From Pyxidicoccus sp. MSG2 (GTDB lineage: Bacteria; Myxococcota; Myxococcia; Myxococcales; Myxococcaceae): a DNA stretch of 64,000 bases. The position numbers and the translations under genes were made by a program. The notes under the pieces were generated by a model that searched no databases, had not been told where the DNA came from, and saw only the letters and a list, made by a program, of their open reading frames with translations. This document shows, one piece after another, positions 58,489-62,716 of the stretch. Each line of letters opens with the position of its first letter. The first letter of the stretch is position 1. The stretch is taken from NCBI RefSeq assembly GCF_026626705.1, contig NZ_JAPNKC010000001.1, forward strand, positions 6,032,001 to 6,096,000. The letters run 5' to 3'.

Positions 58489-59043
58489 ATGAGGATTCGA
58501 TACCGTCTGATGCTGGCCGCCGCCGTGGCGCTCACCGTGTCCCTGCTGGCGGTGGTGCTGTGGCCGACGTCTTCCGTTCCGCCGGTGGTGCCGGAGGCTC
58601 CCGTCGCGGTGGCTCCCGTGGCGTCCGCGCCCGTGGCTTCTTCGCCGGAGTCGGTGCCCGAGAAGGTCGCCGCGCGGACGCGGGCGGAGCCGGTGCTCAC
58701 GAGCAGCGAGGCGCAGGCCACGGTGGTGGCGCTGGGGCCCGGTGACGTCGCGCCGGAGCCGGAGGTGGAGGGCGCGCCCGCGCAGGAGAACGACGCGATT
58801 GCTCCCGAACTGCCGCAGACGGCGCAGTGGCGGCTGGAGAAGACGACGCGCATCACCGCGCTGCTGGGGCGGGATGTGGAGCGGCTGGAGCGCGAGCGCG
58901 AGGATGCCGAGGCGCGCGGTGACGAGCGGCGCAGCGCGCAGCTCCAGACGCTCCTCGTGCGCCACCGGGCCCGGCTGCACGAGCTGCGCGAGGAGATCCA
59001 GGAGCTGGGCGAGGCGGCGAAGCAGGAGTCGTCCGCCGAATGA
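58489..59043 (+). CDS. Single-pass membrane protein with Pro/Ala/Val-rich linker and coiled coil
   Basis: A 184-residue protein with one N-terminal hydrophobic helix (LMLAAAVALTVSLLAVVLWP), a Pro/Val/Ala-rich extended linker (residues 28-100), then a strongly charged coiled coil (about 110-180: RDVERLEREREDAEARGD, HRARLHELREEIQELGE). Probably an inner-membrane-anchored periplasmic helix protein; no family recognised. AGGGAGG precedes the ATG. The stop adjoins the 102-bp repeat region. Confidence 0.72.
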   Translation: MRIRYRLMLAAAVALTVSLLAVVLWPTSSVPPVVPEAPVAVAPVASAPVASSPESVPEKVAARTRAEPVLTSSEAQATVVALGPGDVAPEPEVEGAPAQENDAIAPELPQTAQWRLEKTTRITALLGRDVERLEREREDAEARGDERRSAQLQTLLVRHRARLHELREEIQELGEAAKQESSAE

Positions 59044-59522
59044 GGCAGGGGCCCGCGTCGGCGTCCCGCTCGAGGGCCCGTGGCTCTCCGTCAGGTGCGT
59101 GGACGCGGGGCTCGCCCGTGGGTAGGAGTGGCGCTGTTGCTTGCGCGGGCGGGAAGGAACCGTCCTTCAGCGCGAGGGCCGGTGGCTCTCCGTCAGGTCC
59201 GTGGACGCAGAACTCGCCCGTGGGCCGGAGTGGCGCTGTTGCTCGCGAGGGCGGGAAGGAACCGTCCTTCCGCGCGATGGCTGGTGGCTCTCCGTCGGGT
59301 CCGTGGACGCAGCGCTCGCCCGTGGGCCGGAGTGGGGCTGTTGCTTGCGAGTGTGGAGAGGTCGCGTCCTTCTGGCGGTCGTGGTCGCATGCCGTGGCTC
59401 CGTCGTTTGAGGGCAGCCAGCAAGGCCCTGCTCCGCACGTGCCTCATGGAGAGGTGACTTCGCGGTGGGCCGGCGACACCGCCGTGTCTTGCTCGTTCGG
59501 GGGCCGCCGGGGAGGGCCGTTC
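59044..59522. other. Intergenic region carrying three 102-bp repeats
   Basis: A 479-bp gap before the protease gene. Most of it (59080-59385) is a 3-copy tandem repeat described separately. A long open frame runs through it upstream of the protease start, but no ribosome-binding site supports its use and a lipoprotein signal appears only later. Confidence 0.6.
59080..59385 (+). repeat. Tandem 102-bp repeat, 3 copies
   Basis: Units begin at 59080, 59182 and 59284, each opening GTGGCTCTCCGTC. The period is exact at 102 bases. Copies 1 and 2 are closest; copy 3 diverges in its last third. Copy 2 has a perfect 7-bp inverted repeat GGAAGGA/TCCTTCC around an ACCG loop (59254-59271), and copy 1 a 6-bp version (59153-59168). 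Since 102 is a multiple of 3 the frame is kept, but no start signal points to translation. Confidence 0.9.
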
Positions 59523-60713
59523 GTGCTCGGACCTCGTGGCGCGCTTGCCTTTCTCCTGCTGACGGCTGTGGCTTCGCTGCTTGCTTGCCAGCCCGTGGCC
59601 GAGGCGCCGTCCGTGCCCGCTCCGCGCACGGACTCGATGTTCATCGTGGACGGCACGGACGCGCCGGACGCCGCCGCCGCCGTGGCGCTCATCGCCCGGC
59701 GCACCCGCTGCAGTGGCGAGCCGCCGGTGCTGCTCTGCTCGGGTGCGCTCATTGCGCCGGACGTGGTGCTCACCGCGGCGCACTGTCTGGCCATCTTCGG
59801 ACCGGAAGGGCCACACGAGGTCTACTTCGGCCAGGTGTTGCTCCCCCAGCCGGAGCCCTCGCCACGAGGCCGATTCGCCCGTGTGTCCCATGCAGTCATC
59901 CACCCGGACTACGACGCCGCCACGCACGCGTATGACGCCGCGCTGCTGCGGCTCGCGGCACCGGTGGACGTGGCTCCCTTCCCTCTGCCCGACTCCAAGA
60001 CTGCCGTGCCCGTCGTCGGTGCCTCCGTGCGGGCGGTGGGCTACGGGGACACGAAGGACGCGCGGGCCCCGTCTGGCCGGAGGCGACAGGGAACGCTCGC
60101 GGTGACGCAGGTGGAGCCAGCGGCTTTCCTCGCGGGCCCCTCGCCGAGCATGAGCTGTGTGGGAGACAGCGGTGGGCCGGTGCTCCTGCGCGATGGTGAG
60201 CGCGAGGTGCTGGTCGGGCTCACCGCGAGCGGCGACGTCGCCTGCCGGAATGAGGCTCGCAACGTGCGCGTGGATGTGCTGCTCGACGGCTTCATCCGCC
60301 CGTTCCTCGCGGAGGCCCCCGCGCCCGTCGTGCCCACGCTGGCCCCGGAAGACCTCTGCCGCGCCACGTGCACGCGCGACGCCGAGTGCCCGTCGGGGCT
60401 CACCTGTGTGTCCGCTCAAGGTGCGCCCGGACGGTGCCTGATGCCCGCGCTTCAGGAGGGGGATTACGGAGCGGTGTGCACGGACGACGCTGCCTGTGGC
60501 GCGGGCGGGCTGTGCGCGCGGTTGGAGCCCGAGGGCGACGCCGCGTGCCGCTGCTTCACGTCCTGCTCCGGGCCGCTCCCCGACCCGGTGGACCCTCCCG
60601 AGCCCGAAGCCGATACGGGCGGCTGCTCGAGCGTGCCAGGCCCCGCGCTCCTCGGACTGCTCGTGCTTGCGCTCCGAGTCGCGCGCGGCGTACGTCGGCC
60701 CGCACGGCGCTGA
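59523..60713 (+). CDS. Trypsin-like serine protease lipoprotein with MYXO-CTERM-like tail
   Basis: A 396-residue secreted S1 peptidase. Order: signal with lipobox LLAC; protease domain (about 38-265) with His87 (LTAAHC), Asp138 (YDAALLRL) and Ser216 (GDSGGP); a Cys-rich module (about 280-350: CRATCTRDAECPSGLTCV, CRCFTSC); and a C-terminal GCSSVPGPALLGLLVLAL plus Arg-rich end that fits MYXO-CTERM surface sorting. Both an N-terminal lipid site and a C-terminal anchor in one protein is unusual. GTG start with GGAGGG six bases upstream; longer open frames upstream run through repeats and lack a start signal. Confidence 0.9.
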   Translation: MLGPRGALAFLLLTAVASLLACQPVAEAPSVPAPRTDSMFIVDGTDAPDAAAAVALIARRTRCSGEPPVLLCSGALIAPDVVLTAAHCLAIFGPEGPHEVYFGQVLLPQPEPSPRGRFARVSHAVIHPDYDAATHAYDAALLRLAAPVDVAPFPLPDSKTAVPVVGASVRAVGYGDTKDARAPSGRRRQGTLAVTQVEPAAFLAGPSPSMSCVGDSGGPVLLRDGEREVLVGLTASGDVACRNEARNVRVDVLLDGFIRPFLAEAPAPVVPTLAPEDLCRATCTRDAECPSGLTCVSAQGAPGRCLMPALQEGDYGAVCTDDAACGAGGLCARLEPEGDAACRCFTSCSGPLPDPVDPPEPEADTGGCSSVPGPALLGLLVLALRVARGVRRPARR

Positions 60714-60736
60714 GCGCTGGTTGGAGGACGGTGCGC

Positions 60737-61081
60737 ATGCTGCATCTGCTGGTCCTGAGGTACCGCGTGGCTGAGCAGGAGGCGGAACCCCATGTCGCGG
60801 AGCACGTCCGCTACCTGGAGCACCACCACCGGGCCGGGACGTTCCTCGTATCCGGGCAGACGGTTCCGTCGGAGCAGGGAGGCGCCATCCTGGCCCGAGG
60901 CGTCGATCGCGCCACCGTGGAGCGACTCACCGCCGAGGACCCCTTCGTCCGGGCCGGCGTCGCGGAGTACACCGTAACGACCATCGACCCGGGCCGTGTG
61001 CACCCCGCCCTCGCGGAGTTGCTTGGCGTGAGTGCGTCGCGCGTGCGTCCCAGTTCTTCGGGCGGCGGACGCGTGGAATGA
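60737..61081 (+). CDS. YCII-related protein
   Basis: A 114-residue cytoplasmic protein with the ferredoxin-like YCII fold: LHLLVLRYRVAEQEAEPHVAEH, then HHRAGTFLVSGQT and TAEDPFVRAGVAEYTVTTI. The family's His (HVAEH, HHH) and Asp are plausible active-site residues; functions range from lactone hydrolysis to unknown. Its last ten codons run into the first unit of the palindromic array, whose GGAATGA supplies the stop. Family members are usually about 90-100 residues, so the tail is probably repeat-derived. GGAGG nine bases before the ATG. Confidence 0.85.
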   Translation: MLHLLVLRYRVAEQEAEPHVAEHVRYLEHHHRAGTFLVSGQTVPSEQGGAILARGVDRATVERLTAEDPFVRAGVAEYTVTTIDPGRVHPALAELLGVSASRVRPSSSGGGRVE

Positions 61082-61910
61082 AGCTTCCTTCCACGTTCGC
61101 TGGTTGCCGGGTGGGGGGCGCCGGGCGCTGCCGGACGCGTGGAATGAAGCTTCCTTCCGCGTCCGCTGGTTGCAGGGTGGGTGGGGGCCGGGCGGTGGAT
61201 GCGCGGAATGAAGCTTCCTTCTGCATCTGCTGGCCGCCGTGTGGGGGCGCCGGGCGTCGGACGCGTGGAATGAAGCTTCCTTCCGCGTCTGCTGGTTGTC
61301 GGGTGGGGGGCGCCGGGCGTGTCGGACGTGTGGAATGAAGCTTCCTTCCGCGTCCGCTGGTTGCCGGGTGGGGGCGCCGGACGCCGCCGGACGCGTGGAA
61401 TGAAGCTTCCTTCCGCGTCCGCTGGTTGCCGGGTGGGGGCGCCGGACGCCGCCGGACGCGTGGAATGAAGCTTCCTTCCGCGTCCGCTGGTTGCCGGGTG
61501 GGGGCGCCGGGCGCCGGACGCGTGGAATGAAGCTTCCTTCCGCATCTGCTGGCCGCCGGGTGGGGCGCCGGGCGTCGGACGTGTGGAATGAAGCTTCCTT
61601 CCGCGTCTGCTGGTTGCCGGGTGGGGGCGTCGGACGCGTGGAATGAAGCCTCCTTCCGTGTCTGCTGGCCGTCGGGTGGGGCGCCGGGCGCCGGACGCGT
61701 GGAATGAAGCTTCCTTCCGCGTCCGATGGCTGCCAGGTCGGGTCGCCGGGGCGGGACGCGTGGAATGAAGCTTCCTTCCGTGTCCGATGGCTGCCGGGTG
61801 GGGTTGCCGGGCGCCGGACACGCGGAATGAGCCTTCGTTTCGTCATGGCTATCGGGAGAGGGGTCGCCGGGCGTCACCTGCGGAATGAAGCTTCCTTCCG
61901 GGACCGCTCA
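61066..61910. repeat. Array of 14 tandem palindromic repeat units, ~62-bp period
   Basis: GGAATGAAGCTTCC-type cores begin at 61075, 61141, 61205, 61268, 61332, 61397, 61462, 61523, 61585, 61640, 61701, 61762, 61825 (degenerate) and 61881; periods vary from 55 to 66. Each core is centred on GAAGCTTC and, in the better copies, is flanked by CGGACGCG and CGCGTCCG to make a 34-base imperfect palindrome (61453-61486 in one unit). Between cores lies a G-rich stretch such as GGTTGCCGGGTGGGGGCGCC. Period changes break any reading frame, so it is non-coding. Confidence 0.95.
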
Positions 61911-62127
61911 GTGTTGCGGGGTGGCGCCGGCGCCGTCAGGCGGTGCACTGCTGATGGACCAGTGTCCTCCGTGGCGACGAAGGCCCTGACAGTCACGACG
62001 GTGCGTGGCTCCACCTGGCGCGCCTTCGTCCCCATGCCATCACGCCCGGGGCACATGCATGTCGCGCCCACATTCCGGCCGAGCCCGGCGGCGTGCCCGA
62101 TTCTCCGGGACGCGCGGCCACGGTGCC
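61911..62127. other. Spacer between repeat array and basic protein gene
   Basis: 217 bp with a decaying final repeat unit at its left edge and no recognised gene or structured element after that. Confidence 0.5.
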
Positions 62128-62526
62128 TCAGGCGGGGATGCTCGTCTTGCGCGCGCCCCGGCGCTTGTAGACCTTGCCCGCCTTCAGCGGCGTCGTATCC
62201 CCGCGTCCGGTGGTGCGCTTGGCGGTGCCTTCCTTGCGGTACGCCACGGCGGCCGCGGACGGCAGCGTCTTGCGCCGCGACATGCTGCTGCCCGATTCCG
62301 GCACCGGCAATCTGCGGCCCGTCGCCGTGAGCCCCTTGCCCGGCGCACTGCGCGGGCTGACGTTGCGGTCCTCGAAGTCCGTACTCCCCAACGCCCGACG
62401 GCCGCTCTTCTTCGCCTTGTGGGAGCTCTCGCCCGCGGCCCGGCCCACGTCCGTGGCCTTGAGGGCCAGCGTCGTGCCCCTCTTCTTCGCGTTCTTCACA
62501 CGCACCGCTCGAGTCTTCTCTGGCAT
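62128..62526 (-). CDS. Small strongly basic protein, unknown function
   Basis: A 132-residue protein with about a quarter Lys plus Arg and few hydrophobics (MPEKTRAVRVKNAKKRG, SSHKAKKSGRRALGS, KVYKRRGARKTS). It is probably disordered and nucleic-acid-binding or ribosome-associated; no domain recognised. GGGAGG lies five bases before the ATG, supporting expression. It is divergent from the zinc-ribbon membrane protein gene over 190 bp. Confidence 0.65.
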   Translation of the reverse strand: MPEKTRAVRVKNAKKRGTTLALKATDVGRAAGESSHKAKKSGRRALGSTDFEDRNVSPRSAPGKGLTATGRRLPVPESGSSMSRRKTLPSAAAVAYRKEGTAKRTTGRGDTTPLKAGKVYKRRGARKTSIPA

Positions 62527-62716
62527 GGAACCTCCCAGGCACTCAGGTAGGAATGAATCTCCCCGGTTGCCAGGGCGCGGTAGGACGGACGGGCCCCAGC
62601 GTTGCGTCCGTTGCGCGCCTTCCTTCCGCTCCACATCCGCGTCGCACCCGGGGACGAGGTTGCGCACGCGCACGTCGCGGTGCTCCCATGCCGCCACCGT
62701 GCACCGCCCGCCCTTC

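What the first reader, a model, noticed from the sequence alone, without database searches (positions are those of the whole stretch)
61066..61910. Fourteen-unit array built around a 34-base imperfect palindrome
The unit CGGACGCG-TGGAATGAAGCTTCCTTC-CGCGTCCG folds into a near-perfect hairpin centred on GAAGCTTC. Arms show signs of structure conservation: the unit at 61198-61227 swaps GACGC/GCGTC for GATGC/GCATC, and others change G-C to G-U-type pairs. One unit (61523) has an uncompensated C-A mismatch, so the covariation is suggestive only. Repeat-to-repeat length varies (55-66), so it is not translated and not CRISPR. Possible roles: transcription or mRNA-stability buffer after the YCII gene, protein-binding array, or a repeat family expanding by recombination.
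Basis: partly seen in the sequence, partly recalled or inferred. Interest (0 to 1): 0.75.

Follow-up and report, generated by a model that had tools for sequence, protein, structure and literature searches.

The report
Dispersed DNA palindrome family in Pyxidicoccus/Myxococcus
The repeat array is one of at least 50 places in this Pyxidicoccus-like chromosome (about 255 copies in all) that carry the same strictly conserved 18-base near-palindrome, mostly just downstream of genes; its copy number changes fast while its sequence does not, which suggests an undescribed DNA-binding signal rather than a conserved RNA hairpin.

Summary
The array is real: 14 units at 61066-61906, spacing 55-66. It is one locus of a genome-wide family. 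The conserved unit is not the 34-base hairpin but an 18-base near-palindrome, GGAANGAASSTTCCTTCC (usually with Y before and R after): about 255 units in this 13.3 Mb genome against 5-6 expected. Over 84,980 species genomes the exact motif is essentially confined to Myxococcus/Pyxidicoccus.

Of 41 loci compared with P. caerfyrddinensis, 37 are shared; 25 of 26 array loci differ in copy number. In shared single copies the 18-mer diverges 2% against 17-21% in its flanks. Flanking arms do not pair beyond chance, the fully paired T-A version is absent from the genome (0 against 97 mismatched copies), and orientation ignores transcription (23:22). The long stem is private to a few loci, this array included; the sister species' orthologous array mostly lacks it. 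Elements are depleted from coding DNA and sit about 60 bases after stop codons; some are in genes and translated.

Best reading: REP/BIME-like arrays of a DNA-level binding site, expanding by slippage or recombination. No REP transposase (Y1_Tnp) was found in 27 congeneric genomes. The cognate protein is unknown and function is inferred.

The parts
61066..61906 (+). the 14-unit array (34-nt units incl. private outer arms) between the YCII gene and a convergent basic-protein ORF
61075..61092 (+). unit 1 core GGAATGAAGCTTCCTTCC; its TGA (61079-61081) is the stop codon of the YCII gene
   Evidence: the same arrangement is read directly in the sister species
61141..61158 (+). unit 2 core
61205..61222 (+). 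unit 3 core; arms GATGC/GCATC
61267..61284 (+). unit 4 core
61332..61349 (+). unit 5 core
61397..61414 (+). unit 6 core
61462..61479 (+). unit 7 core
61524..61541 (+). unit 8 core; arm C-A mismatch
61585..61602 (+). unit 9 core
61640..61657 (+). unit 10 core, one change (GCCTCC)
61701..61718 (+). unit 11 core
61762..61779 (+). unit 12 core
61824..61841 (+). unit 13, degenerate core
61882..61899 (+). unit 14 core, outer arms lost
59066..59351 (+). second, diverged locus of the same family: 102-bp period, about 2.8 copies, core GGAAGGAACCGTCCTTC at 59152 and 59254
60737..61081 (+). YCII-domain gene upstream of the array
   Evidence: PF03795, E 3.4e-12; conserved with the array in G002 and G022
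62128..62526 (-). convergent ORF for a small Lys/Arg-rich protein, no Pfam match
   Evidence: similar sequence downstream of the array in G002 and G022

Best explanation
A dispersed, REP/BIME-like family whose functional part is a 20-bp near-dyad, Y-GGAANGAASSTTCCTTCC-R, recognised as double-stranded DNA by an unidentified, probably dimeric DNA-binding protein: one half-site strict (TTCCTTCC), the other lenient (GGAANGAA). Sites lie mostly just after stop codons, where bound protein could mark or insulate gene ends or relieve transcription-driven supercoiling, as gyrase-binding BIME-2 arrays are reported to do in E. coli. Tandem arrays grow and shrink by slippage or unequal recombination, so spacers homogenise within a locus while the core is kept by selection. 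Shown: the family, its location, core constraint, copy-number turnover, absence of arm constraint. Inferred: the binding protein and its role.
For: About 255 units genome-wide against 5-6 control hits; exact motif 98+73 against 0+0. Loci located in G022 by flanks alone still carry the intact core: 37 of 41. Core divergence 4/180 against 62/360 in the adjacent flank, p = 4e-8; p = 1e-5 if core changes are doubled for ascertainment. Invariance stops at the core: columns 1-4, 6-7 and 11-18 are at least 97% fixed, position -1 is Y and +1 is R, beyond that free (units picked with at most 3 mismatches). Fully paired T-A form: 0 in this genome and only 5 sites in 27 genomes, against 97 T/C-mismatch units here, so base pairing at that position is not what is selected. 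Orientation against flanking tandem genes 23:22. 28 of 115 clusters in coding DNA against 85% coding; in tandem gaps nearer to the upstream stop in 42 of 55, median 59 nt. The core is kept even where it is translated (L051).
Against: No cognate protein identified and no binding or expression data. Modal array spacings show no helical phasing (periods 10-11, p > 0.2), so cooperative binding on one DNA face is not indicated. The 3' bias and L042, where the position of a hairpin is conserved with compensatory changes and other species have unrelated hairpins, fit an RNA role there. The dyad could be kept by an unknown copying mechanism rather than by host function.
Confidence: 0.45

Rival explanations
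1. A selfish REP-like palindromic element without host function, spread by an unidentified mobility enzyme and multiplied locally by slippage.
For: Dispersed, extragenic, clustered, genus-restricted, from 0 to about 170 exact strand hits per genome. Lineage-specific gains or losses: at L036 and L059 the relatives aligned lack an ~80-150 bp element-bearing segment. REP families without a dedicated transposase are known (CGTC REPs, PMC3733652). Loci show weak shared flanks.
Against: Inert copies should decay at the neutral rate, but shared single copies keep the core at 2% divergence against 17-21% in flanks. No Y1_Tnp gene in 27 genomes, with positive controls ringing.
Confidence: 0.27
2. A transcribed 3' hairpin acting in termination, processing or mRNA stability, usable on both strands between convergent genes.
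For: 3' bias; the core itself can form ((((.((....)).)))) in 38 of 45 loci; long stems in this array, L042 and L057; positional hairpin turnover at L042.
Against: Arms unpaired family-wide; T-A pair avoided; no U-tract; no sense/antisense bias; some copies lie inside translated genes.
Confidence: 0.2
3. A local tandem expansion (VNTR) of no significance beyond this intergenic gap.
For: Tandem structure and copy-number change between species.
Against: More than 50 unlinked loci share the core, and it is conserved across species.
Confidence: 0.03

Closest known systems
REP elements / BIME-2 arrays of enterobacteria
   Same: Short imperfect palindrome, mostly extragenic, between tandem or convergent genes, single or in arrays, >100 copies; some copies inside genes (features as reported in PMC2817692 and PMC3733652)
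   Different: No GTAG/CGTC tag, no Y1_Tnp/RAYT gene in the genus, arrays mostly head-to-tail with 40-128 bp spacing, 18-mer conserved in sequence rather than in structure
CGTC-tagged REPs without a dedicated transposase (PMC3733652)
   Same: Palindromic extragenic repeat families lacking a known transposase
   Different: No CGTC tag next to the core; different taxa
Rickettsia palindromic elements (recalled, not tested)
   Same: Palindromic repeat found in frame inside protein-coding genes
   Different: Here the coding copies are 18-mers in linkers, a minority; most copies are extragenic

Membership tests
REP (repetitive extragenic palindrome) | short imperfect palindrome in more than 100 copies, mostly extragenic | tested here: met
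   about 255 units, 28 of 115 clusters in coding DNA against 85% coding
REP (repetitive extragenic palindrome) | association with a RAYT (Y1_Tnp) gene | tested here: not met
   PF01797: 0 of 27 genomes, controls ring in 5
REP (repetitive extragenic palindrome) | unpaired GTAG or CGTC tag at one end | tested here: not met
   4 bases before the core read roughly nnGY and those after roughly RCnn, no tag
REP (repetitive extragenic palindrome) | located between tandem or convergent genes, downstream of ORFs | tested here: met
   tandem 55, convergent 22, divergent 10; 42 of 55 nearer to the upstream stop; depletion from divergent gaps alone p = 0.08
BIME-2 | tandem arrays that bind DNA gyrase | not testable with these tools
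   arrays present; binding needs an assay
BIME | REPs in alternating orientation | tested here: inconclusive
   mostly head-to-tail in this genome; orientation blocks switch within the G021 array L284
CRISPR array | unique spacers of near-constant length | tested here: not met
   spacers are themselves repeated within each locus; spacing varies
intrinsic terminator | GC stem followed by a T-run | tested here: not met
   0 sites in 60600-62700

The most novel reading that the evidence does not exclude
A dedicated, still unknown Myxococcus/Pyxidicoccus DNA-binding protein reads a 20-bp half-strict dyad at more than 50 chromosomal sites, with site number tuned by fast array turnover: a new bacterial gene-end insulator or chromosome-organising system not derived from RAYT-type REPs.
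Probability: 0.3. Interest if true: 0.75.

Novelty: new variant of a known kind. Interest (0 to 1): 0.55.

Why it matters
It gives myxobacteria what looks like their own REP/BIME-like system, and in a clean form: the conserved part can be separated from the palindrome-forming arms, hosts and losses are mapped across 27 genomes, and there is no RAYT. That makes the old question, whether such repeats persist as selfish hairpins or as binding sites, directly testable by pull-down and by deleting single arrays. Copy number differed at 25 of 26 array loci between the two species compared, so the arrays would also be useful strain markers.

Tried and rejected
RAYT/IS200 origin: no Y1_Tnp in the genus. 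Rfam: only a chance miRNA hit below threshold. Extended hairpin as the conserved unit: rejected family-wide, weak in the array. Helical phasing of array spacing: none. Period-3 spacing: strong when loci were pooled with duplicates; on separate loci it is confined to a few arrays, L051 (shown to be translated), L070, L072, L052. Transcription-oriented element: 23:22. Viral origin: no exact hit in viral contigs. Literature: no description of this repeat found with the terms used. Non-myxobacterial matches (Comamonas, Paenibacillus, some MAGs) are one or two sites each, about what chance gives, and were not followed.

Full report
OBSERVATION. The array is present as described: 14 units at 61066-61906, twelve of them with the exact 17-mer GGAATGAAGCTTCCTTC, spacing 55-66. 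It lies between a YCII-domain gene (PF03795) and a convergent ORF for a small basic protein. The TGA inside the first core is the YCII stop codon here and in the sister species (read directly). The array is not coding. Its 8-bp outer stem covaries only weakly more than shuffles.

A GENOME-WIDE FAMILY. The core occurs all over the 13.3 Mb genome. GGAANGAASSTTCCTTC with up to 2 mismatches gives 254 + 257 strand hits against 6 + 5 for the reversed control; since the near-palindrome is hit on both strands this is about 255 units. I fetched 53 loci: roughly half are single copies, the rest arrays with spacings from about 40 to about 120. Some arrays have centre CG, others GC, CC/GG or CA, usually uniform within an array. 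A second, diverged locus lies in the same window at 59066-59351.

DISTRIBUTION. Among 119 genomes searched (own and relatives), 17 have exact hits: 16 are in the same GTDB genus and one (G034) in another genus of the family. No exact match in viral contigs. In G021 the arrays have a drifted core (GGAATGAACGTTCC[GCA]TCC) and blocks of opposite orientation, so strict counts underestimate such genomes.

LOCATION. With a simple codon-usage gene caller applied to own loci and loci of relatives, 28 of 115 clusters lie in coding sequence against 85% coding overall. Of the rest 55 lie between tandem, 22 between convergent and 10 between divergent genes. In tandem gaps the element is nearer to the upstream stop in 42 of 55, at a median of 59 nt. 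Orientation of the asymmetric core relative to transcription is 23 sense, 22 antisense. The gene caller is crude and misses some translated arrays: L051 is inside a gene for a TonB-type receptor with a carboxypeptidase-regulatory domain, where the units encode a GMNVPS/GTNVPS-type Pro/Ala-rich linker with all spacings multiples of 3. L070 and L072 also keep multiples of 3 in both species, which suggests translation but is not proof.

CONSTRAINT. Using flanking DNA only, I located the orthologous sites in G022 and read them. 37 of 41 loci carry the element in both species; of 26 loci that are arrays in at least one, 25 differ in unit number (for example 21 to 7, 6 to 1, 1 to 4). In ten shared single-copy loci the 18-mer differs at 4 of 180 positions, the flanks at 62 of 360 and 103 of 500. 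Choosing loci by an intact core in the own genome hides changes on that lineage; doubling the core changes still leaves p = 1e-5. Four loci are absent in G022; at L036 and L059 the relatives lack an ~80-150 bp element-bearing segment just after the stop codon. At the window's own locus G022 has 12 units and G002 has several with a CG centre, while three more distant relatives with an orthologous YCII gene have none visible downstream.

HAIRPIN OR DNA SITE. (i) Across 45 intergenic loci, positions 1-10 outside the core pair 162 times against 170 +/- 9.6 for shuffled partners. (ii) Shuffling the flanks does not change fold energy (mean z -0.17). (iii) The pair 5/14 is T/C, C/C or G/C; the fully paired T-A form is absent from this genome, with five sites in the genus, so one half-site is strict and the other lenient. 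(iv) There is no strand preference. These favour recognition of double-stranded DNA over selection for an RNA stem. Against this, the convergent site L042 has a long stem conserved in five species with compensatory changes, and M. xanthus-like genomes (by size; not named here) have an unrelated strong hairpin at the same place; there the element probably also serves as a hairpin. The window array shares that private long stem, but G022 mostly lacks it.

COMPARISON WITH THE KNOWN. The layout resembles REP/BIME elements (PMC2817692, PMC3733652): palindromic, extragenic, downstream of ORFs, single or in arrays, occasionally intragenic. It fails two REP criteria: no RAYT and no GTAG/CGTC tag. I therefore say it works like a BIME-type array but do not file it as a RAYT-type REP.

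LIMITS. One genome per species; no expression or binding data; the cognate protein is unknown. The absence of a published description rests on open-access full-text searches only.

Noticed in passing
window 59066-59351: Second diverged locus of the family, 102-bp period, upstream of a trypsin-like gene and inside a long open frame starting at 59040.
   Followed up: partly
L051:807-2300 and G022 ortholog L222: Array translated in frame as a Pro/Ala-rich linker after the signal peptide of a TonB-dependent receptor-like protein; copy number differs between species (8 and 5).
   Followed up: partly
L070/L229 and L072/L236: All array spacings are multiples of 3 in both species although lengths differ, suggesting translated repeats; in L072 the open frame runs into a lipoprotein signal peptide.
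   Followed up: partly
L034 and L083: The 18-mer lies in the linker after KVDRKALPAP in two NRPS-like genes, apparently in frame.
   Followed up: no
L042, L249-L258: Same convergent gene junction carries the family hairpin in five species and an unrelated perfect GC hairpin in the M. xanthus-like genomes.
   Followed up: yes
L284 (G021:C1:8937800-8940200): About 19-unit array with a drifted core consensus and internal switches of orientation.
   Followed up: no
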